Source of the DNA: Brachybacterium sp. EE-P12
GTDB taxonomy: Bacteria; Actinomycetota; Actinomycetes; Actinomycetales; Dermabacteraceae
NCBI RefSeq assembly: GCF_003711805.1
Contig: NZ_QXCP01000010.1
Location: forward strand, 1,061 to 65,060
Direction of reading: 5' to 3'
DNA length: 64,000 nt
Position numbers and translations under genes: made by a program. Positions 26,562-35,571 of this stretch are shown piece by piece; the stretch's first letter is position 1; the number at the start of each line of letters is the position of its first letter. The notes under the pieces were generated by a model. It saw nothing but the letters and a program-made list of their open reading frames with translations, was not told the DNA's origin and did not search any database.

Positions 26562-27767
26562 TCAGGCCCCGGTCGCGAGCGCCTCGCGCACGGAGCTCCA
26601 CGAGCGCATGATCTCGCGGGCGTCCTCATCAGCCTCCGCGGTGATCGCCTCGAGACGCGCCTGCTCGAGCAGCTCGTCGATCTCGACGCGCCCGCCGCCG
26701 TCCACGGCCGCGACGGCCGCCTCGACCATCGCGAAGCTGAGCAGGTTCTCGTGGATCTCGCACATGGGGGTGCGGCCCTCGCGCAGCGCGCTCACGCACT
26801 CCACGAGCGAGGCCGCGATCTGGTCGGGCTCGGGGGCGGTCTCCGCCTCGACCGCGGCCTGCAGGCGGGCGGTCTCCTCCTCGTCCGCGGTGCCGAGCAC
26901 AGGCACGCCCGTGCCGTCCCAGGTGGCCGAGCCGTGCTGGGCACCGATCCGCCATTCGCTGTTCCACCAGGTCGGCAGGCCGCGGGCATTCCACGTGCCG
27001 TGATAGGCGAACAGGGAGCCGTCGGACATCTCGAAGGTCGCCGAGACCGTCGCGTCGTGGTGGTAGACGCTCCACTCGGGACGGGCGCCGACGGCGGTGA
27101 CCGCGACCGGGTCCGCATCCAGGATGTAGCGGGCGGTGTCGAAGGCGTGGATGCCCATGTCGCGCAGCAGCGGGTGGCGCTGGGTGCGGCGGTAGCCCTC
27201 CATCTCCGTGAACAGGGAGAAGAAGGCGCTGGTCATCACCGTCGGCCCGTGTGCGGCGACGAAGCTGCGCAGCTGGCGCACCTGGCGGAAGAACCGCCGC
27301 GACTGGGAGACCATGAACGGCACCCCGGTCAGCTCGGCGTGCGCGAGCAGGCTGATCGCCTCGGGCAGCGTCTCGGTGACCGGCTTCTCGCCGAGCACCG
27401 GGATCCCGGCGTGCAGCGCCTTGACGGTCACCGGGTGGTGGGCGACGGGGACGGTGGGGTCGACGAGCAGGTCCGCCTCGACGGCGAGCGCCAGGTCGAC
27501 CCCGTCGGTCCCGACGGCGACCGCCCCGGGATCGGCGGCCCCGGACTGGGCGATCACGCGCTCGGGCGCGCCCTCGACGAGATCGGCGACGCCGACGAGC
27601 TCGGCGACCTCGCTCTCCACGATCTCCCGGGCCCACCAGCTGCCCATGCCGCCCGCGCCGACGACGACCACGCGCGCGGGCCGGTCCCCGTCCAGTCGCG
27701 GGAAGCCGGTGAGCTCGGCGGCGGGCACGGGGGCGGCGGAGGTGTCGGTGAGCGTCTCAGATGACAC
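26562..27767 (-). CDS. Gfo/Idh/MocA family NAD(P)-dependent oxidoreductase
   Basis: 401 residues. Rossmann domain from about residue 30 with VVVVGAGGMGSWWARE, the EKPVTET motif at about 130 whose Lys is the catalytic lysine of the family, and a C-terminal beta-sheet substrate domain. GDMGIH-like RDMGIHAFDTARY carries the Asp and His of the active site. Acts in the cytosol on a sugar, inositol or related polyol; the exact substrate is unknown. GTG start 27767 has GGAGGGAG upstream and overlaps the ThuA stop by 11 bases, so the two proteins probably work on one carbohydrate. Confidence 0.88.
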   Translation of the reverse strand: MSSETLTDTSAAPVPAAELTGFPRLDGDRPARVVVVGAGGMGSWWAREIVESEVAELVGVADLVEGAPERVIAQSGAADPGAVAVGTDGVDLALAVEADLLVDPTVPVAHHPVTVKALHAGIPVLGEKPVTETLPEAISLLAHAELTGVPFMVSQSRRFFRQVRQLRSFVAAHGPTVMTSAFFSLFTEMEGYRRTQRHPLLRDMGIHAFDTARYILDADPVAVTAVGARPEWSVYHHDATVSATFEMSDGSLFAYHGTWNARGLPTWWNSEWRIGAQHGSATWDGTGVPVLGTADEEETARLQAAVEAETAPEPDQIAASLVECVSALREGRTPMCEIHENLLSFAMVEAAVAAVDGGGRVEIDELLEQARLEAITAEADEDAREIMRSWSSVREALATGA

Positions 27768-28530
27768 GGGCGGCTCCCTCCGGGTCCTCGCCGCGGAACC
27801 AGTCGCGCGGGGCGTTCGCGATCTTCACCGGGGTGGCCTCGCGCTCCTCCGGCCGCGCCCAGACCACGGCGTTGGCGAGCACGCGCTGGATCTCGGCCTG
27901 GCGGTAGACGGGGTACTCCTGGTCCCCGGGGCTGAAGTAGAAGACCTTGCCCTTGCCGCGGCGGAAGGCGGCGCCGGAGCGGAACACCTCGCCGCCGGCG
28001 AAGGAGGAGACGAACACGAGCTCGTCGGGGGCGGGGATGTCGAACATCTCCCCGTACATCTCCTGCTCGGGGACGATGATCGGGTGCGGGACGCCGCGCG
28101 CGATCGGGTGGGAGCCGTTGACGGTCCAGACCCGCTCCTCCTCGCCCTCGTTGCGCCACAGCAGGTTGCAGGTGGTGCCCATGAGCTTCGTGAAGGGCTT
28201 GGAGTAGTGGGCGGAGTGCAGGGGGATCAGCCCCATGCCCTCGTGGACGCGGCGCACCACGCGCTCGGCGACCTCGTCGGGGACGTCCGCGTGGGCCATG
28301 TGCCCCCACCAGGTGAGCACGTCGGTCTCGGCGAGCGCCTCCTCGCTGAGCGTCTCCTCGATGTCGTCGAGCAGGGCGATCCGCACCTCGGCGTCGATGC
28401 CGTCGGCCGCGAGGAGGGAGCGCAGGCCCTCCGCGATCACCGTGTGCATCCCCTCGGGATAGATCTCCTGGACCTTCGGGTCGACCTTCTCGTGCCGGTT
28501 CTCGCCGAAGACGGCGATGCGCAATGTCAT
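27757..28530 (-). CDS. ThuA-like sugar utilisation protein
   Basis: 257 residues, one ThuA domain. ThuA of Sinorhizobium works with the Gfo/Idh/MocA-type ThuB in trehalose and related disaccharide use through 3-keto sugars; the same pairing is seen here. Typical features are the class I amidotransferase-like fold with TWWGHMAHADV, LHSAHYSKPF, the NEGEEERVW segment and SHPIARGVP. No nucleophile Cys of true amidotransferases is present. ATG 28530 is preceded by GAGGGAA. No sugar transporter or regulator adjoins the pair. Confidence 0.85.
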   Translation of the reverse strand: MTLRIAVFGENRHEKVDPKVQEIYPEGMHTVIAEGLRSLLAADGIDAEVRIALLDDIEETLSEEALAETDVLTWWGHMAHADVPDEVAERVVRRVHEGMGLIPLHSAHYSKPFTKLMGTTCNLLWRNEGEEERVWTVNGSHPIARGVPHPIIVPEQEMYGEMFDIPAPDELVFVSSFAGGEVFRSGAAFRRGKGKVFYFSPGDQEYPVYRQAEIQRVLANAVVWARPEEREATPVKIANAPRDWFRGEDPEGAARVI

Positions 28531-28722: not shown

Positions 28723-29118
28723 TCACCGCTCGGGCGCGACCTCGCCCAGGATCCCCTCGGCCCGCAGCCGCTCGATGAGCGCATCGGCGGTCTCCGCGTG
28801 CAGCCTCGCGGCACGCGACCAGCCGACGGCGCCGCCGAGGGCCCGGCCGACGGTCGCGCCCCAGCGGTAGCGGATCCGGGTCCCGCCGGGGATCTCGTCG
28901 AGCTCGAGCCGGGCCCGGACGTGGAAGCGCCGCCCCGCGAGGGCGCCGAGCAGGATCGTGCGGGCGAGGCTGCCGCGCTCCACGTCGAGACGCTCCGCCC
29001 CCTGCGCGTGCACGCGCCAGCCCCGGCCGGCGAAGAACTCCTCGAGCAGGGGGCGCAGCGCGCCCGCGTCCGCGCGGACGCTCAGGCGCACGCCGCCGCC
29101 CCGGTCCGCGCTCAGCAC
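28723..29118 (-). CDS. SRPBCC (START-like) family protein
   Basis: 131 residues from GTG 29118, overlapping the phosphatase stop by seven bases. The predicted alpha/beta order and segments such as LDVERGSLARTILLGAL, FHVRARLELDEIPGGTRIRYRWG and a long C-terminal amphipathic helix fit the SRPBCC lipid-binding fold, which forms a deep hydrophobic cavity. No catalytic residues can be assigned. As the last gene of an operon for lipid enzymes it could carry or sense an acyl or alkyl chain; that is inference from location. Family assignment itself is moderate. Confidence 0.65.
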   Translation of the reverse strand: MLSADRGGGVRLSVRADAGALRPLLEEFFAGRGWRVHAQGAERLDVERGSLARTILLGALAGRRFHVRARLELDEIPGGTRIRYRWGATVGRALGGAVGWSRAARLHAETADALIERLRAEGILGEVAPER

Positions 29119-29717
29119 GTCGTCCCCGGGGCGAGGGCCCTGCCCGGCCCCAGCTCGCGCAGCTCGGCGTTGCCCAGGTGCGGCACCTCGCGGTGGTCGT
29201 GCGGGTCGCGGCCCGCGCCGAGCGCGAGCGCGATCTGGAGCACGTCCCCGTGGGCGACGAGCACGACGTCGGCGCCGCGGGCGACCTCCTCGTCGGCCGC
29301 GGCGAGCGCCGCGAGCACCCGGGAGGCGACCTCGGCGACCGGTTCGACCCCGTCGGGATGGGCCGCGCGGGCGCGGTCGCGCCCCCACACCTCGTCGTAG
29401 GCGGTCGTGGGGCCCTCCTCGTGCGCGCCGAAGCCGCGCTCGCGCAGGCGCTCGTCCACGCGCGGAGCGGCCGCGCCGAGCCCGGCGGCGAACTCCTCCG
29501 CGGTCTGCCGCGCACGGGCGAAGTCGCTGGTGATCACCAGGGTGTGCGCGCCGAGGCCCTGTGCCCGGGCGGCCGCCGCGGCCTCGCGCGCCTGCTCGCG
29601 GCCGCACGCGGTGAGCCCCACCTCCTCCAGCGCCCGCCGGCCGGGGGCGGAGACGATCACGCCCTCGACGTTCGCGGTGGACTCGCCGTGGCGGAGCACG
29701 TGCAGCTGCGGCGCCAC
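29112..29717 (-). CDS. Histidine phosphatase (phosphoglycerate mutase-like) family protein
   Basis: 201 residues. LRHGEST at 8-14 holds the catalytic His; TSDFARARQTAEEF supplies the second Arg; RERGFGAHEEG and VAHGD the acid and second His. The family includes mutases and phosphatases of many small phosphates; the fusion-free 200-residue form fits a phosphatase. It lies three bases after the AGPS-like gene on the same transcript, so a lipid phosphate or glycerol-phosphate substrate is conceivable, but the sequence alone does not show it. Confidence 0.85.
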   Translation of the reverse strand: MAPQLHVLRHGESTANVEGVIVSAPGRRALEEVGLTACGREQAREAAAAARAQGLGAHTLVITSDFARARQTAEEFAAGLGAAAPRVDERLRERGFGAHEEGPTTAYDEVWGRDRARAAHPDGVEPVAEVASRVLAALAAADEEVARGADVVLVAHGDVLQIALALGAGRDPHDHREVPHLGNAELRELGPGRALAPGTTC

Positions 29718-29720
29718 GGC

Positions 29721-31427
29721 TCAGGGGGCGATGATCTTGCCCGGGTTGAGGTTCCGCCCCGGGTCGTTGTCCGCGAAGAGGCCCGTCACCATGCGCGCCC
29801 CGACCTCGCCGATGTCCTCGGTGATCCAGGGCTGGTGCTCGGTGCCCACCGCGTGGTGGTGGGAGACGGTCGAGCCGAGGTCCACGAAGGTCTGCTGCAC
29901 CGCGTTCTTCGCCCGGTAGTACTGCTCGAGCGCCTGCTCGTCGGAGGAGTAGGGGAAGGCGAAGGTGAAGTAGAGGCACGCGCCGGCGTGGTAGCTGTGC
30001 GACATGTGGCAGAACATGAAGCCGGGCAGGTCCTGCTCGCGCTGGGCGGCGTAGAAGGCGTCGTACACCTTCGAGTGGACCTCGTTGATGTTCGACCAGG
30101 TCGCGCCCGTGTCGCACACGTCGCCGAAGACCTGGTAGTTCATCAGGAAGTCGCGCAGGTACGGGGTGTCGAACTTCTTCTGGTCGTAGATCGCGCCGGG
30201 CCCCGCGCCCAGCGTGATGCCGCCGGCCCGCTTCACGATCTTCTTCACGATCGCCTTCTGGTGCTCGACGGCCTCCTTCGTGCCCTCGAAGCAGACGTAG
30301 GAGATCGACATCTCGTTCGTGGTGTCCCAGCCCTTGGAGCGCAGGTAGGCGAACAGGCCGTCCTGCACCTTCGCGGCGACCTTCCCCTTGGTCGAGCTGG
30401 GCTCCTTGACCATGGCGAGGCTGAACTCGGTCTCCGGCCCGTCGGAGAGGCGGGTGAAGGTGGGGGTGACGTCGGTGGAGCGGGCGATCGCGTGCATGCC
30501 GCGGATGCCGTGCTCCCAGTCGGGGTACATGTAGGCGATGACCTGGCGGACCGGGGCTATGCGATGCACCTGCACGGTCACCTCGGTGATCACGCCGAGG
30601 CGGCCCTCGCTGCCCAGGATCATCTCGTGCACGCTGGGCCCGGAGTCCCGGCCCGGGATCGGCTTGGTCACCGCGACGCCGTCGGGGTGGACCAGCCGCA
30701 GCCCGCGCACGATGTCCTCGATGTCGCCGTACTTGTCCGACTGCATGCCGGAGGAGCGGGTCGCCGCCCAGCCGCCGAGGGTCGAGTAGGTGAAGGAGTC
30801 GGGGAAGTGGCCGACGGTCCAGCCCAGCGCGTTCAGCTGCTCCTCGAGGTCGGGGCCGTACACGCCGGCCTCGACGCGGGCCAGGCCCGCAGTGTCGTCG
30901 ATCTCGATCACCTCGCGCATGCGGCCGAGATTCATGGTGAGGATCGGGCGCTGCTCGTCGACGTCCGGGGTGACGGAGCCGGAGATGCAGGAGCCGCCGC
31001 CGTAGGGGATCAGCACGAGGTCCTCGTCCAGGACGAGGCGGAGGATCCGGGCGACCTCGTCCTCGCTCGCGGGATAGACGACCGCGTCGACGAGCCGCTC
31101 GAAGAGGCCGTTGCGGACGCGGAAGAGGTCCGGCAGGGAGCGGCCGAAGGAGTGCACGACGCGGTACTCGTCGTCGTCGAGCAGGTTCTCCTCGCCGACG
31201 ACGTCCACCAGCGCGGCGCGGGTCGCCTCGGGCAGGCGGCTCGCGGGCACCTCGTGGTCCGACAGCTCGGGCTCGACCGGCTGCTTCGCATCGAGGTCCA
31301 CGCCCACCTTGTTCCTCGCCAGCGGGGCGAAGGCGGGCTTGTTGTCGTAGCGGAAGGTGACGTCGTCCAGGCCCCATCCCCACCACTTGTGCCGCTTGAC
31401 CTCCCGTGCGCTCAGCCGATCGCTCAT
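29721..31427 (-). CDS. FAD-linked alkyl-dihydroxyacetonephosphate synthase (AGPS) homologue
   Basis: 568 residues. In eukaryotes AGPS swaps the acyl chain of acyl-DHAP for a fatty alcohol, creating the ether bond. The vanillyl-alcohol-oxidase FAD domain is at about 90-290 (PYGGGSCISGSVTP, GSEGRLGVITEVTV). The substrate domain follows, ending with SHHHAVG: the HHH triad at residues 523-525 corresponds to the active-site histidines of AGPS and distinguishes it from lactate or glycolate oxidases. The N-terminal KWWGWGLDD is also AGPS-like. Start overlaps the PlsC stop (ATGA). Neighbours encode an acyl reductase, ketoreductase and acyltransferase, which fit the pathway. Confidence 0.88.
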   Translation of the reverse strand: MSDRLSAREVKRHKWWGWGLDDVTFRYDNKPAFAPLARNKVGVDLDAKQPVEPELSDHEVPASRLPEATRAALVDVVGEENLLDDDEYRVVHSFGRSLPDLFRVRNGLFERLVDAVVYPASEDEVARILRLVLDEDLVLIPYGGGSCISGSVTPDVDEQRPILTMNLGRMREVIEIDDTAGLARVEAGVYGPDLEEQLNALGWTVGHFPDSFTYSTLGGWAATRSSGMQSDKYGDIEDIVRGLRLVHPDGVAVTKPIPGRDSGPSVHEMILGSEGRLGVITEVTVQVHRIAPVRQVIAYMYPDWEHGIRGMHAIARSTDVTPTFTRLSDGPETEFSLAMVKEPSSTKGKVAAKVQDGLFAYLRSKGWDTTNEMSISYVCFEGTKEAVEHQKAIVKKIVKRAGGITLGAGPGAIYDQKKFDTPYLRDFLMNYQVFGDVCDTGATWSNINEVHSKVYDAFYAAQREQDLPGFMFCHMSHSYHAGACLYFTFAFPYSSDEQALEQYYRAKNAVQQTFVDLGSTVSHHHAVGTEHQPWITEDIGEVGARMVTGLFADNDPGRNLNPGKIIAP

Positions 31428-32341
31428 GCGTCTCCCTCCTCGTCCCGGGCGGCGCCGCCCAGGACCTCGTCGTGGTGCTCGTCGTACAGATCCTTCACTC
31501 GCTCGCGGATGCGGGTCGAGAACTCGGTCGCGGGTTCGCCCTGAAGCGCGACCATGGGGTCGCCGAAGACCACGCGCACCGTCGGGCGCCCCGGCACCGG
31601 CCAGGAGCGCCCCTTGGGCATCGCCTCGTAGCCCCCGATGATCGCGGCGGGGACCACGGGCACGCCGACCCCGATCGCGAGCGCGGCGCCACCGGGCTTG
31701 AACTCGGCCATCGTGCCGGTCTGCTGCCGGCCGCCCTCGGGGAACACGAGGATCGGGACGCCCGAGCGCAGGAGCTTCCGGGACGTGCCGGAGTGCTTGC
31801 GTGACCCGCCCCTGTCGATCGGGAAGGCGTTCATCATCAGGCGCACGAAGATGCGGCGGTGCCAGTGGTCGAACCAGTAGTCCGTGGCCACCCCGGTGCT
31901 GAGGAAACGTGCCTGCGTCCACGGCAGGCTCATCGCCAGCAGCGGTCCGTCGACATGGCTGGTGTGGTTGGCGACCAGCACGAATGGCCCGCGGATGCTC
32001 TTCACGCGACGGTGGACCTGCACCTGGGGGGTCACGGCGGAGTTCACCACGACCCGGAACAGGACGCGCTGCAGCACGAAGCGCAGTCCGGCCCGCCAGC
32101 GGGAGCGGTACTTCGCCAGCTCCCCCGTCGGCTTCTCCCAGCCCTCGCCGCGGGAGCGGGCCGAGAGCGAGTCGAACAGGCGCCGGGAGCGGTCCTTGAG
32201 GTCGTCGGCGGCCTTCGCGGTCGCATCCGCGGCGCGGCTCGAGGCCTCGGTGAAGCGGGCCGCGGCCTCGGCCCGGCGCGTGGGCTCCTGCTCCTCGGGC
32301 CGCGTCTCCTCGGGCTCCTTCTCGCTGTCCTCGGTGCTCAC
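31424..32341 (-). CDS. 1-acyl-glycerol-3-phosphate acyltransferase family protein (PlsC)
   Basis: 305 residues. The catalytic NHTSHVDGP motif lies near residue 125 and the FPEGGRQQTG motif near 200, with FPIDRGGS between them, all standard for LPLAT/PlsC enzymes that acylate lysophospholipids at the membrane. An unusual acidic, Ala-rich N-terminal arm of about 80 residues precedes it. A hydrophobic stretch near 85-100 probably docks to the membrane. Placed between a ketoreductase and AGPS, it may acylate the sn-2 position of an alkyl-glycerol phosphate, or DHAP itself; both are inferences. It begins four bases after the SDR stop. Confidence 0.88.
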   Translation of the reverse strand: MSTEDSEKEPEETRPEEQEPTRRAEAAARFTEASSRAADATAKAADDLKDRSRRLFDSLSARSRGEGWEKPTGELAKYRSRWRAGLRFVLQRVLFRVVVNSAVTPQVQVHRRVKSIRGPFVLVANHTSHVDGPLLAMSLPWTQARFLSTGVATDYWFDHWHRRIFVRLMMNAFPIDRGGSRKHSGTSRKLLRSGVPILVFPEGGRQQTGTMAEFKPGGAALAIGVGVPVVPAAIIGGYEAMPKGRSWPVPGRPTVRVVFGDPMVALQGEPATEFSTRIRERVKDLYDEHHDEVLGGAARDEEGDA

Positions 32342-32345
32342 GCGA

Positions 32346-33122
32346 TCACTTCTCCCGGTTGCGGCGGTGGCTGAGCAGCGCGCTCAGCCGTGCGACGAGA
32401 CCGCGGGGCGTGCCGCGCAGCACGGCCGCGATCAGCTTCCAGCGCTTCGACGGGATCGAGACGGGCTTCCCGCGGGCCACGTCCCGCAGGCAGTCCTCGA
32501 CCAGCCGGTCCGCGTCCAGCCACAGCACGCCGGGGATCGACGAGCCCTTGATCCCGGCGCGGGTGTGGAACTCGGTGCGGACCCAGCCCGGCATCAGCGC
32601 GGTGACCTGCACGCCGGTGCCGGCCAGCTGCACGCCGAGGGACTCGGAGTAGTTGCCCACCCAGGCCTTGATGGCGGAGTAGTTGTTCTGGGTCACCAGC
32701 GCCGAGACGGAGCCGACGTTGATGATCCAGCCGCGGCCGCGACGGCGCATCCCGCGCCCCGCCGCTCCGCCGAGCTTCAGCACGGCGCGGATCATCACCT
32801 CGAAGCCGAGGTCGTGGGGGGTGAGGTCCTCGTCCAGCAGGCCGGCGCGCACGGAGAATCCGGCGTTGTTCACGAGCACGTCGACGGGGTCGACGTCGGA
32901 CTCGAGGCGGTCGGCGACCCGCTGCTGGGCCTCGCGGTCGGCGAGGTCCGCGGTGATCGTCTCGACCTCCACGCCGTGCTCGCGGCGGAGCTGTGCGGCG
33001 GTCTCCTCGAGGCGATCGGGGTCCCGCGCGACCAGCACGAGGGCGCTCCCCCGTCCGGCGAACGCTCTGGCGAACGCCGCCCCGATGCCTGCGGTGCCGC
33101 CGGTGATCAGGGCCCTATGCAT
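32346..33122 (-). CDS. Short-chain dehydrogenase/reductase
   Basis: 258 residues, classical SDR. TGGTAGIG near 8-15 binds NADP(H), NNAG near 88, and the active site SVSALVTQNNYSAIK with Tyr near 146 and Lys near 150. The Arg of VLVARDPDR suggests NADP(H). A basic C-terminal tail (KRWKLIAAVLRGTPRGLVARLSALL) looks amphipathic and could bind membrane. In this operon a likely task is reduction of acyl- or alkyl-DHAP. TATCGT seven bases ahead of ATG 33122 suggests a leaderless transcript. First gene of the five-gene minus-strand unit. Confidence 0.88.
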   Translation of the reverse strand: MHRALITGGTAGIGAAFARAFAGRGSALVLVARDPDRLEETAAQLRREHGVEVETITADLADREAQQRVADRLESDVDPVDVLVNNAGFSVRAGLLDEDLTPHDLGFEVMIRAVLKLGGAAGRGMRRRGRGWIINVGSVSALVTQNNYSAIKAWVGNYSESLGVQLAGTGVQVTALMPGWVRTEFHTRAGIKGSSIPGVLWLDADRLVEDCLRDVARGKPVSIPSKRWKLIAAVLRGTPRGLVARLSALLSHRRNREK

Positions 33123-33129
33123 GGCGGCT

Positions 33130-33139
33130 ACGATACACT
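33130..33139. promoter_or_regulatory. Overlapping divergent -10 boxes of the lipid locus
   Basis: On the minus strand TATCGT (complement of 33130-33135) ends exactly seven bases before the ATG of the SDR gene, the spacing of a leaderless actinobacterial promoter. On the plus strand TACACT at 33134-33139 fits a -10 box for the acyl reductase gene, with about 130 bases of leader. The two hexamers overlap by two bases, so the two transcripts would compete or be switched together. Confidence 0.5.
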
Positions 33140-33273
33140 AGCGCCGCCCTGACCAGCGCGGAGAAGCTCCCAGGTGGGAGGCCCGCAGGGCACCCGCGCG
33201 TGTCCCGCGCCCCGTGCACGGACCGCGCCGATCGCCGGTCCCGCGCCCGCCGCACTCGTCCACAGAGGATCCC

Positions 33274-35571
33274 ATGACGCACACCACCTCCCCCGCCGAT
33301 CAGCCCGCCGCCGGCGGCACACCCCGCGGGGGTCGTCGGATCCTGCTCACCGGCGTGACCGGCTTCCTCGGCCAGGCCGTGCTGCGCTCCCTGCTGGAGA
33401 CCACCGAGGACGTCCACGTCACCGCCGTCGTGCGCCCGAAGGGCTCGGTCACCGGCCGCCGCCGCCTCGAGCAGCTGCTGCGCAAGCCCGTCTTCGCCTC
33501 CTGGGCGGAGCAGCTGGAGAAGGACGGCGCGCTCGAGGGCGCCGCCGACGGGAAGGCGCGCCTGAAGGACATCCTCGATGCGCGCGTGGGCGTGCTCGAG
33601 GGCGACCTCACCGACATGCCCGCGATCACCGACCCCGTCGACACGGTGATCCACTCGGCCTCCTCCGTCTCCTTCGACCCGCCGATCGACGACGCCTTCC
33701 GCACCAACGTCGGCGGCGCGCGGAACCTCTACGAGGCCCTCCTCGCCTCCGGGCAGGACCCGCACGTCATCCACGTCTCCACCGCCTACGTCGGCGGCAT
33801 CTCCAAGGGGCTGCGCCAGGAGGGCTCCCTGCGGGCCGACGTCGACTGGCGCGCCGAGTACGACGCCGCGCTCGCCGCCCGCGAGCGGGTCGAGGCGGAG
33901 TCGCGCCGGCCCGAGACGCTGCGCTCCCAGATCCGCTCGGCGAAGCTGCAGGTGGGCCGCATGGGCCCGAAGTCCGTCGCGAGCGTCTCCGAGGACGCGC
34001 GCCGCGACTGGGTCGAGCAGCGCCTGGTCGACTTCGGCCGCACCCGCGCCCAGTCCGTCGGCTGGACCGACATCTACACCTTCACCAAGGCGATGGCGGA
34101 GCAGGTCGCCGAGGAGCTGTGGGCCGGCAGCGGCCACCGCGTCTCCTTCGTGCGCCCCTCCATCATCGAGTCCGCGATGACCAAGCCCTACCCGGGCTGG
34201 ATCGACGGCTACAAGGTCGCCGATCCCCTGATCATGGCCTACGGCCGCGGCATGCTGCCGGAGTTCCCGGGCCTGGCCGACTCGATCCTCGACGTGATCC
34301 CCGTCGACCACGTCGTCAACGTGATCGTGGCGCTGGCCACGCAGGACGTCTCCCGCCGCGGCGACGAGGCCTACTACCAGGTCGTCTCCGGCGCCTCGAA
34401 CCCGCTGCCCTTCCACGAGATGGTCACCGCGGTGCGCGAGTACTTCACCGAGTTCCCGCTCGAGGACGACAAGGGCCGCCCGATCGCGGTGCCCGAGTGG
34501 TCCTTCCCCGCGGTGGAGATGGTCGAGCAGCGCTTCCGCGCCAAGGAGCTCTCCGCGAAGATCGGCTCGGCCGCCGTCGCCTACCTGCCCGCCACGCGGC
34601 GCACCCGCGAGTGGACCTCCGGCCTGCACAAGGCCACCTCGGGGCTGACGATGCTGCGCAAGTACATCGAGCTGTACCGCCACTACACGAAGACCGAGAT
34701 GGTCTTCGACGATGCGAACACGCGCGCGCTGCGGGAGGAGCTCCCCGAGGAGTTCCTGGCCACCCACGACTTCGACGTCACCGGGATCGTGTGGAAGGAC
34801 TACTTCCAGAAGCAGCACCTGCCGGCGGTCACGGAGCTGACCAAGGCGTACTCCCGTGCGAAGTCCGCGCAGAGGCGCCGCGCCTCGCGCCCCGTCCCCG
34901 AGCTCAAGCAGTCCACCGACTCGCTCGCGGTCTTCGACCTCGACGGCACCGTGCTCGCCACGAACATCGTCCAGCAGTACTTCGCCGTGGTCCGCGCGAC
35001 CCGCCCCCGCCGCACCTGGCCGGCCGAGATCGGCGGCCTGCTCGCCGCGGTGCCCGGCTACCTGCGCGCCGACCAGCGGGACCGCTCGGAGCTGATCCGT
35101 CTGGTCAACCGCCGCTACAAGGGCTACCGCAGCGAGGAGCTGCGTGCTCTCATGCAGGGCGAGGCGGGGCGTCGCATCCGCTCCTCGATCCGTCCGGAGG
35201 CGCTGGAGACCATCGAGCGCCATCGCGCGGCCGGGCATCGCACCGTGCTGGTCTCCGGTGCGCTGGACGTGCTGGTCGAGCCGCTCGCGGACCTCTTCGA
35301 CGAGGTCGTCGCGACCCACATGGACGAGGACAGCAGCGGCGTGATGACCGGCTATCTCGCCACGCCCCCGCTGGTGGACGAGGCGCGCGCGAACTGGCTG
35401 CGCAAGTACGCGGACCTGCACGGCGCGGACCTGTCGACCTCCTACGGCTACGGCGACTCGCACGCCGACGCGGCCTGGCTCGAGCTGGTGGGCACGCCCG
35501 CCGCCGTCGCCCCGGACCTCGGGCTGTACGCCGTGGCGAAGAAGAAGCGCTGGCAGATCCTGGAGTGGTGA
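33274..35571 (+). CDS. Fatty acyl reductase-like extended SDR fused to HAD-IB hydrolase
   Basis: 765 residues. The N-terminal part has TGVTGFLGQAVLRSLL (NADPH loop), HSASSVSFD, HVSTAYVGG and YTFTK (Tyr near 267), the pattern of fatty acyl-CoA reductases of the male-sterility family; the FAR_C-like helical part spans about 400-520. From about 550 a HAD-IB (SerB-like) phosphatase domain begins with FDLDGTVLAT and ends with GYGDSHAD. Thus it could make fatty alcohol from acyl-CoA and also act on a phosphate ester. ATG 33274 has GAGGA upstream. It is divergent from the SDR-PlsC-AGPS operon and its stop overlaps the YibE/F start. Confidence 0.85.
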   Translation: MTHTTSPADQPAAGGTPRGGRRILLTGVTGFLGQAVLRSLLETTEDVHVTAVVRPKGSVTGRRRLEQLLRKPVFASWAEQLEKDGALEGAADGKARLKDILDARVGVLEGDLTDMPAITDPVDTVIHSASSVSFDPPIDDAFRTNVGGARNLYEALLASGQDPHVIHVSTAYVGGISKGLRQEGSLRADVDWRAEYDAALAARERVEAESRRPETLRSQIRSAKLQVGRMGPKSVASVSEDARRDWVEQRLVDFGRTRAQSVGWTDIYTFTKAMAEQVAEELWAGSGHRVSFVRPSIIESAMTKPYPGWIDGYKVADPLIMAYGRGMLPEFPGLADSILDVIPVDHVVNVIVALATQDVSRRGDEAYYQVVSGASNPLPFHEMVTAVREYFTEFPLEDDKGRPIAVPEWSFPAVEMVEQRFRAKELSAKIGSAAVAYLPATRRTREWTSGLHKATSGLTMLRKYIELYRHYTKTEMVFDDANTRALREELPEEFLATHDFDVTGIVWKDYFQKQHLPAVTELTKAYSRAKSAQRRRASRPVPELKQSTDSLAVFDLDGTVLATNIVQQYFAVVRATRPRRTWPAEIGGLLAAVPGYLRADQRDRSELIRLVNRRYKGYRSEELRALMQGEAGRRIRSSIRPEALETIERHRAAGHRTVLVSGALDVLVEPLADLFDEVVATHMDEDSSGVMTGYLATPPLVDEARANWLRKYADLHGADLSTSYGYGDSHADAAWLELVGTPAAVAPDLGLYAVAKKKRWQILEW

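What the first reader, a model, noticed from the sequence alone, without database searches (positions are those of the whole stretch)
28723..35571. Candidate complete ether-lipid biosynthesis locus in an actinobacterium
Seen: a divergent locus encodes a fatty acyl reductase-like protein (fused to a HAD phosphatase), an SDR, a PlsC acyltransferase and an AGPS homologue that keeps the SHHHAVG active-site triad. Known: AGPS makes the ether bond from acyl-DHAP and a fatty alcohol; FAR makes that alcohol; a ketoreductase and acyltransferase complete alkyl-acyl-glycerol phosphate. Inference: these genes together make ether glycerolipids. This route differs from the anaerobic PlsA/PlsR plasmalogen route and from the multidomain ElbD of myxobacteria.
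Basis: partly seen in the sequence, partly recalled or inferred. Interest (0 to 1): 0.78.

Follow-up and report, generated by a model that had tools for sequence, protein, structure and literature searches.

The report
Actinobacterial AGPS ether-lipid gene block
This actinobacterium carries a conserved gene block that very probably makes ether-linked membrane lipids by the same chemistry as animals, and in many relatives the block includes an unrecognised iron-enzyme pair that may turn them into plasmalogens.

Summary
The genes are there: FAR-HAD (+) facing SDR, PlsC and AGPS (-). The AGPS looks genuine: best solved matches are Dictyostelium and mammalian AGPS (E 5e-99, 9e-87) against 5e-19 for D-lactate dehydrogenase; R419, R515, Y578 and the HHH triad are kept; model and tree agree. 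FAR-HAD, SDR and PlsC lie near AGPS in 70 of 80 fetched loci. In 327 genomes of the order, all 65 with strong AGPS have FAR-HAD, 9 have FAR-HAD without it, 253 neither. So ether-lipid synthesis is well supported, though no lipid was measured and the first (DHAP) acyltransferase is unproven. The gene set has a precedent in Myxococcus MXAN_1676-1674. New here: a diiron desaturase-like protein 'A' and a degenerate paralogue 'B' flank FAR-HAD in many relatives; in one family 38 of 40 strong-AGPS genomes have A, on the same contig. The window's genome carries A and B on another contig. A/B is a candidate oxygen-dependent plasmalogen desaturase for aerobic actinobacteria, some of which are reported to yield dimethylacetals. 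Six A-bearing genomes of that family lack AGPS, so this step stays open.

The parts
33214..35571 (+). FAR-HAD fusion: fatty acyl reductase domain (about 1-540) plus HAD-IB phosphatase domain (about 571-768)
   Evidence: PF07993, PF03015, PF12710 over cut-off; TIGR01490 over cut-off; solved relative 7eoz fatty acyl-CoA reductase E 5e-48. In the 9-row alignment the nucleotide-binding loop, Y288 and K292 (YxxxK), D575, T579, D748 and D752 are invariant; the second Asp of the HAD DxD motif (D577) is present here but is E in 3 and Q in 1 of the 9 rows
33123..33213 (.). 91-base gap between the divergent FAR-HAD and SDR genes; presumably holds both promoters
   Evidence: sequence; promoters not tested
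32346..33122 (-). SDR, proposed 1-alkyl (acyl)-DHAP reductase
   Evidence: PF00106 3e-37; best NCBIfam mycolate reductase 153 bits, far below its cut-off 380; TGGTAGIG and YSAIK (YxxxK) read in the sequence; present in 79 of 80 loci
31424..32341 (-). PlsC-type acyltransferase, proposed DHAP acyltransferase or sn-2 acyltransferase
   Evidence: PF01553 2e-19; NHTSHVD (HX4D) and FPEGGR read in the sequence; 75 of 80 loci; own genome holds four more PF01553 matches elsewhere
29721..31427 (-). AGPS (alkylglycerone-phosphate synthase) homologue
   Evidence: phmmer 4.7e-99 to ADPS 2uuu, 8.6e-87 to mammalian AGPS 4bby; model TM 0.85 to 4bby; tree
29112..29717 (-). histidine phosphatase, next in the same gene run, not part of the conserved core
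   Evidence: PF00300 2e-28; 18 of 80 loci
28723..29115 (-). 130-aa protein of unknown family at the end of the same gene run
   Evidence: no Pfam or NCBIfam match; 17 of 80 loci

Best explanation
The block encodes an AGPS-type (DHAP-based, animal-like) ether glycerolipid pathway. FAR reduces a fatty acyl thioester to a fatty alcohol. An acyltransferase, most likely the block's PlsC, acylates DHAP. AGPS swaps the acyl chain for the alcohol to give 1-alkyl-DHAP. The SDR reduces it to 1-alkyl-glycerol-3-phosphate. A PlsC-type acyltransferase (this one or one of four others in the genome) then adds the sn-2 acyl chain. The HAD domain may remove a phosphate from an intermediate or product. SHOWN here by sequence, fold and co-occurrence: identity of the AGPS, intact catalytic motifs in the window's proteins, conserved clustering, near-obligate pairing with FAR-HAD. 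INFERRED: the order of steps, the PlsC and HAD roles, the products. Extension, less certain (about 0.35): the diiron protein A with its degenerate partner B desaturates the alkyl chain next to the ether oxygen with O2, giving plasmalogens. In the window's genome A/B is encoded on another contig.
For: AGPS identity: best solved matches are AGPS by 80 orders of magnitude over D-lactate dehydrogenase; R419, R515, Y578 and H615-617 of mammalian AGPS face R326, R425, Y486 and H523-525 here (alignments, positions; all invariant in the 12-row alignment); Foldseek ranks 1-37 are AGPS, best TM 0.85, LDH TM 0.67; the tree splits the AGPS side from five GEHG-type GlcD/LDH-like proteins with support 100/100. 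Clustering: 70 of 80 loci with all four genes, in 56 FAR-HAD divergent, in 13 all on one strand, 1 other. Co-occurrence: strong AGPS with FAR-HAD 65, without 0; FAR-HAD without strong AGPS 9; neither 253, of 327 genomes; in 17 of the 65 the two genes are unlinked yet both kept. No WS/DGAT wax ester synthase in the own genome and in 8 of 9 others, so the alcohol has no evident wax ester sink. A/B: all six diiron ligands (E45, E77, H80, E141, E171, H174) invariant in 17 A proteins and in the window genome's A; model resembles acyl-ACP desaturases best; in family f19 the 38 genomes with both A and strong AGPS have them on one contig, 5.5-12.3 kb apart.
Against: No lipid of any strain with this block was measured here, and no listing of my searches showed a published ether lipid of Brachybacterium. 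Nine genomes have FAR-HAD without strong AGPS (three of them 62-76% complete), so FAR-HAD may serve something else there. A second, more distant AGPS-like group (16 genomes, 337-500 bits) lacks FAR-HAD in 15 of 16. Four loci have no PlsC in the block and three have AGPS, SDR and PlsC without FAR-HAD in the stretch held. The HAD DxD motif is not conserved in 4 of 9 FAR-HAD rows. For A/B: 6 of 44 f19 genomes with A and 7 of 47 order genomes with A have no strong AGPS, 5 of those 47 have no FAR-HAD either, and 25 strong-AGPS genomes of the order have no A.
Confidence: 0.82

Rival explanations
1. The AGPS homologue is really a D-2-hydroxy acid (lactate/glycolate type) oxidase and the cluster is unrelated lipid or carbon metabolism.
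For: NCBIfam's best match is GlcD (123.7 bits), but far below its cut-off of 567.9; the two share the FAD_binding_4 / FAD-oxidase_C architecture.
Against: AGPS E 4.7e-99 against LDH 5e-19; HHH instead of the GEHG of the five GlcD/LDH-like proteins tested; tree and fold; constant partner FAR-HAD.
Confidence: 0.03
2. FAR-HAD serves wax ester or free fatty alcohol synthesis and the AGPS beside it is a minor or unrelated activity.
For: Nine of 74 FAR-HAD genomes have no strong AGPS, so FAR-HAD can stand alone.
Against: No WS/DGAT in the own genome and in 8 of 9 other block genomes; only Actinacidiphila L066 has one (the 14 control genomes did not ring, but L066 did, so the search can find it). All 65 strong-AGPS genomes have FAR-HAD.
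Confidence: 0.07
3. A/B is an ordinary acyl-ACP/acyl-CoA desaturase (or other diiron oxidase) that makes unsaturated branched fatty acids and is linked to the block only because both tune the membrane; the block then yields saturated alkyl ethers only.
For: Best fold and weak sequence matches are acyl-ACP desaturases and other ferritin-like R2-type proteins; five genomes have A and B without FAR-HAD and strong AGPS (G034, G067, G251, G322, G312); anteiso-C15:1 is reported in Kineococcus beside the dimethylacetal (PMC7472656, passages).
Against: A and B flank FAR-HAD inside the ether block in several families, and A lies within 12.3 kb of AGPS in 38 of 38 f19 genomes that have both; dimethylacetals, the mark of vinyl ethers, are reported from aerobic members of Microbacteriaceae (PMC5945732, passages) and need some desaturase; CarF gave no match in 14 genomes (but its control was silent), PlsA marker PF09989 none in 9 of 10.
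Confidence: 0.4
4. The block makes alkyl-acyl glycerol or alkyl-diacylglycerol (neutral ether lipid) rather than membrane phospholipid, the HAD domain being the phosphatidate-type phosphatase.
For: HAD motif DxDGT intact in the window, and the HAD domain is fused to the alcohol-making enzyme in all nine aligned relatives; M. xanthus makes an alkyl-diacylglycerol, TG-1 (PMC9131029).
Against: No WS/DGAT in the own genome; the second Asp of DxD is E or Q in 4 of 9 relatives, so phosphatase activity may not be kept everywhere (my odds were lowered a little for this); the HAD substrate is unknown.
Confidence: 0.17

Closest known systems
Myxococcus xanthus MXAN_1676-1674 operon
   Same: AGPS homologue (about 42% identical to human AGPS, in print), FAR-like domain, GNPAT-like acyltransferase domain and NAD-dependent epimerase/dehydratase in one operon; loss of MXAN_1676 shows a minor contribution to alkyl ether lipid (PMC9131029, passages)
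   Different: There FAR is fused to the acyltransferase, here to a HAD domain; there elbD is the main route and CarF the desaturase; here AGPS is the only route seen so far (ElbD itself was not searched for) and the A/B diiron pair stands where a desaturase would be
Animal peroxisomal pathway (FAR1, GNPAT, AGPS, PexRAP/AGNPR)
   Same: Same set of enzyme classes; AGPS catalytic residues kept
   Different: No GNPAT orthologue was identified; no peroxisome; HAD fusion
elb operon of myxobacteria (ElbB HAD, ElbD multidomain FAR-ACS-ACP-AGPAT, ElbE)
   Same: A FAR-like domain, a PlsC-like domain and a HAD protein go together (PMC9131029)
   Different: No AGPS named in elb; no ACS or ACP domain found in FAR-HAD
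PlsA/PlsR anaerobic plasmalogen route
   Same: Same final lipid class if A/B makes vinyl ethers
   Different: PF09989 absent from the own genome and from 8 of 9 other block genomes; only Propioniciclava L060 has it, in line with PlsA/PlsR being reported in Propionibacteriales (PMC9702350, passages)
CarF/PEDS1 (TMEM189) plasmanyl desaturase
   Same: Proposed same reaction as A/B: O2-dependent desaturation of the alkyl ether
   Different: CarF is a membrane protein of another family (PF10520, no match in 14 genomes, control silent); A is a ferritin-like diiron protein
Acyl-ACP desaturases (FA_desaturase_2; plant enzymes, M. tuberculosis DesA2)
   Same: Fold class and six-ligand ferritin-like diiron pattern of A
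   Different: A stays under Pfam's cut-off (19.5, 21.4, 21.1 of 22.7 bits); Foldseek similarity is modest (TM about 0.5, rmsd over 11 for the best); a degenerate partner B goes with A

Membership tests
AGPS (alkylglycerone-phosphate synthase) | FAD_binding_4 + FAD-oxidase_C architecture | tested here: met
AGPS (alkylglycerone-phosphate synthase) | closer to known AGPS than to lactate/glycolate/2-hydroxyglutarate oxidases | tested here: met
AGPS (alkylglycerone-phosphate synthase) | catalytic residues R419, R515, Y578, H615-617 (mammalian numbering; R419 and Y578 are named in PDB mutant titles, the roles of R515 and the histidines are recalled) | tested here: met
   alignments; R326, R425, Y486, H523-525, invariant
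AGPS (alkylglycerone-phosphate synthase) | acyl/alkyl exchange activity on acyl-DHAP | not testable with these tools
   needs an assay
Fatty acyl reductase (FAR) | NAD_binding_4 plus Sterile domain, YxxxK | tested here: met
   Y288 and K292 invariant; 7eoz 5e-48
HAD-IB phosphatase (for the HAD domain) | TIGR01490 over cut-off and DxD motif | tested here: met
   window protein 112 bits of 98.3, DLD present; but DxE or DxQ in 4 of 9 relatives
Alkyl-DHAP reductase (PexRAP/Ayr1 type) | orthology to a characterised alkyl-DHAP reductase | tested here: inconclusive
   generic SDR; no such name among the best NCBIfam or PDB matches shown
DHAP acyltransferase (GNPAT) | orthology or activity on DHAP | tested here: inconclusive
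   PF01553 with HX4D only; activity not testable
ElbD | FAR-ACS-ACP-AGPAT multidomain protein | tested here: not met
   FAR-HAD has no ACS, ACP or acyltransferase domain
PlsA/PlsR plasmalogen route | PlsA-type protein (PF09989 taken as marker; the choice of marker is recalled) | tested here: not met
   0 matches in G000
CarF/PEDS1 | PF10520 protein in the genome (the family number is recalled; the tool names it Lipid_desat) | tested here: inconclusive
   0 of 14 genomes, but no control genome rang
Acyl-ACP desaturase family (for protein A) | Pfam FA_desaturase_2 over cut-off | tested here: not met
   the three A-type proteins scanned score 19.5, 21.4 and 21.1 bits against 22.7
Acyl-ACP desaturase-like diiron protein (for protein A) | six carboxylate/histidine ligands in two ExxH motifs plus two glutamates, and the fold | tested here: met
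   ligands; fold by modest similarity only
Plasmanyl (delta-1') desaturase (for A/B) | A/B-dependent vinyl ether formation | not testable with these tools
   needs lipid analysis of mutants

The most novel reading that the evidence does not exclude
Aerobic actinobacteria make true plasmalogens by a second, independently evolved oxidative route: an AGPS block makes the alkyl ether, and a ferritin-like diiron enzyme A, paired with a catalytically dead paralogue B that has lost iron ligands, introduces the vinyl ether double bond. This would be a third way of making the plasmalogen bond, beside CarF/PEDS1 and PlsA/PlsR, and would explain the dimethylacetals reported from aerobic Subtercola and Kineococcus. 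The window's organism carries all these parts, A/B on another contig.
Probability: 0.35. Interest if true: 0.87.

Novelty: new variant of a known kind. Interest (0 to 1): 0.62.

Why it matters
A 2022 review (PMC9131029, passages read) treats myxobacteria as the striking exception among aerobic bacteria for plasmalogens and says that true CarF homologues beyond them have been reported, among bacteria, only in Leptospira; a Kineococcus description calls its dimethylacetals surprising at first sight (PMC7472656). This block gives a gene-level account of ether lipids in a wide set of actinobacteria, names culturable genera to test, and offers a concrete, knock-out-testable candidate for the missing vinyl-ether step. 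It may also give a bacterial AGPS system without the ElbD route that masks AGPS in M. xanthus (ElbD was not searched for in these genomes).

Tried and rejected
Rejected: glycolate/lactate oxidase reading of the AGPS. Rejected as core parts: the histidine phosphatase and the 130-aa protein downstream (18 and 17 of 80 loci). Not supported: a wax ester role. Literature searches that gave nothing on this block: AGPS with actinobacteria (0 papers); AGPS with plasmalogen terms (30 of 45 listed); agpS with mycobacterium (20 of 554 listed, none on a bacterial AGPS by title or abstract apart from PMC11948995); AGPS with FAR and bacteria (20 of 61 listed); dimethylacetal with Frigoribacterium (0 papers); block genera with dimethyl acetals (12 of 850 listed, none of them holding that term); plasmalogen with Microbacteriaceae (15 of 55 listed, none relevant); a last combined search (10 of 22 listed). 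The Subtercola vilae genome paper PMC6518244 holds none of the six terms asked.

Data choices to know: 'strong AGPS' (855 bits or more in the order survey) was set after seeing a gap down to 500 bits; the 16 weaker ones (337-500 bits) were left out of the co-occurrence count and told separately; in the family survey two weak ones (G355, G400) were left out in the same way. FAR-HAD was counted at E <= 1e-80. One search counted G446 as having A, but its only match is at B level (147 bits), so the family count was mended from 45 and 39 to 44 and 38. The Fisher values (3e-59, 4e-27, 6e-27; 9e-27) ignore kinship between genomes and are only a guide. The lists were copied by hand. Of the 22 A and 24 B-type proteins, 17 and 11 went into the alignments A1 and A2; L045's single hit was taken as B-type from its low identity. 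Genomes drawn are samples of larger groups. That family f19 is Microbacteriaceae is inferred from one member whose AGPS and A are 90% identical to Frigoribacterium's (L122 against L073).


Full report
WHAT IS THERE. On the minus strand three genes are packed end to end, SDR (33122-32346), PlsC-type acyltransferase (32341-31424) and AGPS homologue (31427-29721), followed by a histidine phosphatase (29717-29112) and a 130-aa protein without family match (29115-28723). FAR-HAD (33214-35571) points the other way across a 91-base gap. FAR-HAD is a fatty acyl reductase (NAD_binding_4 and Sterile domains) fused to an HAD-IB domain. The reductase loop and YxxxK are invariant in nine aligned FAR-HAD proteins. 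The HAD DxDGT motif is intact in the window, but its second Asp is E in three and Q in one of the nine. All 21 genomes sampled from the window's genus, its own included, carry FAR-HAD and strong AGPS, and the named loci of highest identity are Brachybacterium, so the window is taken to be from Brachybacterium.

THE AGPS IS GENUINE BY COMPUTATION. The protein's best solved matches are Dictyostelium alkyl-DHAP synthase (4.7e-99) and mammalian AGPS (8.6e-87); D-lactate dehydrogenase follows at 5e-19. In the same alignments mammalian R419, R515, Y578 and H615-H617 face R326, R425, Y486 and H523-H525 (positions), all invariant in 12 block AGPS proteins. The AlphaFold2 model (pLDDT 77.8, with low-confidence stretches that include residues 523-527) matches AGPS structures in ranks 1-37 (TM 0.85 for the best) and lactate dehydrogenase only after these (TM 0.67). 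In a maximum-likelihood tree of 25 rows the block AGPS, the two eukaryotic AGPS and a second actinobacterial AGPS-like group form one side, and five GEHG-bearing GlcD/LDH-like proteins the other, 100/100. The branching order among the eukaryotic, block and second groups is weakly supported (80/90 and 86/82), and the eukaryotic rows are long.

THE BLOCK IS CONSERVED. Of 80 loci fetched with the AGPS (288 relatives were found, the best 80 kept), SDR lies near AGPS in 79, PlsC in 75, FAR-HAD in 74, all three in 70. FAR-HAD is divergent in 56 of the 70 and co-directional in 13, with one other arrangement. The loci come from Brachybacterium, Dermabacter, Helcobacillus, Brevibacterium, Kocuria, Georgenia, Ruania, Occultella, Jiangella, Frigoribacterium, Propionibacteriaceae, Streptomyces and others. 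The misses: L025, L052 and L076 are cut by contig ends; L067, L071 and L075 have no FAR-HAD in the stretch held; L046, L048, L060 and L078 have no PlsC match near AGPS.

CO-OCCURRENCE. In 327 genomes of the order, FAR-HAD was found in 74 and AGPS in 81, of which 65 score 855 bits or more and 16 score 337-500. All 65 strong ones have FAR-HAD; 9 genomes have FAR-HAD without strong AGPS (three of these are 62-76% complete); 253 have neither. The two genes are neighbours in 48 of the 65 and unlinked in 17 (14 on different contigs, 3 far apart on one), so the pairing mostly outlives loss of linkage. Against a simple picture, 15 of the 16 weaker AGPS genomes have no FAR-HAD. The five of that group that I opened keep THHH or SHHH, and a second, distant copy in G077 has HQH; that group must get its alcohol, or do its work, otherwise.

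A DIIRON PAIR GOES WITH THE BLOCK. In 24 of the 80 loci one or two further conserved genes lie beside FAR-HAD: A, about 264 aa, in 22, and B, a distant paralogue, in 24. A has the six ligands of ferritin-like diiron oxygenases, E45, E77-x-x-H80, E141, E171-x-x-H174, invariant in 17 sequences. Pfam FA_desaturase_2 comes close but stays under cut-off in the three A proteins scanned. The model of A (pLDDT 85) has the two chains of a plant acyl-ACP desaturase structure as its best matches (E 5.5e-4 and 6.3e-4, but TM about 0.5 and rmsd over 11), with other desaturases, R2-like oxidases and M. tuberculosis DesA2 behind. The fold class is thus likely, the substrate open. B is homologous over nearly the whole length (HHalign probability 100) but in all seven B proteins compared has R, K or Q at E77, no histidine at H80 and K, R or H at E171: presumably a catalytically dead partner. 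The window's own genome carries A and B side by side on another contig (G000 C7:233792-234577 and just upstream), A with all six ligands; 17 of 21 genomes of the genus have A.

HOW TIGHT IS THE LINK. In the order, 47 of 327 genomes have A; 42 of them have FAR-HAD and 40 strong AGPS. In family f19 (taken to be Microbacteriaceae because one member is 90% identical to Frigoribacterium in AGPS and A) 44 of 150 genomes have A and 40 strong AGPS; 38 have both, 6 only A, 2 only AGPS (G435 and G446, 85% and 77% complete), 104 neither (one search had counted G446 as having A). In all 38 the two lie on one contig, 5.5-12.3 kb apart. In the six f19 examples opened for this the order is A, FAR-HAD, B, then divergent SDR, PlsC, AGPS. 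Five genomes (G034, G067, G251, G322, G312) have A and B but neither FAR-HAD nor strong AGPS, and three more f19 genomes with A lack strong AGPS (G393, G436, G440; FAR-HAD not searched there). What A/B does in these is unexplained, and this is the main reason for caution. Conversely 25 strong-AGPS genomes of the order have no A; on my reading they would make only saturated alkyl ethers.

MECHANISM. The animal route (FAR1, GNPAT, AGPS, alkyl-DHAP reductase, acyltransferase; summarised in PMC9131029) maps on the block one to one except for GNPAT. I assign that role to the block's PlsC because four other PF01553 acyltransferases in the genome can serve sn-2 acylation and because M. xanthus fuses a GNPAT-like domain to FAR beside its AGPS. 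This is inference, and four loci without PlsC show that another enzyme can do it. The HAD domain's role is unknown; a phosphatase for alkyl-(acyl-)glycerophosphate is my guess, weakened by the changed DxD motif in some relatives.

LITERATURE. Dimethylacetals, which acid methanolysis makes from vinyl ethers, are reported from aerobic actinobacteria: 17% iso-C16:0 DMA in Subtercola vilae and DMA in all Subtercola species, little in Agreia, none in Frondihabitans (PMC5945732, passages), and 2.9% anteiso-C15:0 DMA in Kineococcus rubinsiae, whose authors take it as a sign of plasmalogens (PMC7472656, passages). A review of aerobic plasmalogens names myxobacteria as the exception among aerobes and CarF as their desaturase (PMC9131029, passages). 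AGPS homologues in actinobacterial metagenome-assembled genomes have been noted (PMC11868695, passages), and AGPS near another type of reductase in 'Ca. Promineifilum breve' (PMC11948995, passages). PlsA/PlsR are reported in several actinobacterial orders, Propionibacteriales among them (PMC9702350, passages). None of the passages read describes this block or the A/B pair; the library holds only open-licence papers.

ROUTES EXCLUDED OR NOT. WS/DGAT: absent from G000 and 8 of 9 other block genomes. PlsA marker PF09989: absent from G000 and 8 of 9 others, present in Propioniciclava L060. CarF PF10520: no match in 14 genomes, but none of the control genomes rang, so this does not prove absence. 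ElbD was not searched for.

VERDICT. The block is very probably an AGPS-type ether lipid pathway, a new variant (FAR-HAD fusion, mostly divergent block, broad in Actinobacteria) of a kind known from animals and, as a minor route, from Myxococcus. The bold reading, a new oxidative plasmalogen desaturase made of A and B, is not shown but is specific and easy to test.

Noticed in passing
L081 7793-9428 (window's genome, another contig): Pair of a diiron desaturase-like gene (A) and a degenerate paralogue (B), which in other families flanks FAR-HAD in the ether-lipid block.
   Followed up: yes
   Followed up: partly
L088, L091-L094 (family f19): A/B pairs in genomes that lack both FAR-HAD and strong AGPS. 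Their neighbours were only read as ORFs for three of the five loci, not scanned by family; L091 and L093 have a weak PlsC-type match about 7 kb off.
   Followed up: partly
FAR-HAD of L039, L053, L070, L073: The second Asp of the HAD DxD motif is E (L039, L070, L073) or Q (L053), so the HAD domain may have lost or changed its phosphatase activity in some lineages.
   Followed up: no
window 28723-29115 and 29112-29717: A histidine phosphatase and a 130-aa protein without family match follow AGPS directly, in 18 and 17 of 80 loci only.
   Followed up: partly
L098, L099: FAR-HAD (about 41-43% identical to the window's) in genomes without strong AGPS, in L098 with a PlsC-type gene about 3 kb off: FAR-HAD may have another role there.
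   Followed up: no
window 26562-28530: Adjacent GFO/IDH/MocA oxidoreductase and ThuA-like genes just downstream, on the same strand; looks like a separate unit.
   Followed up: no
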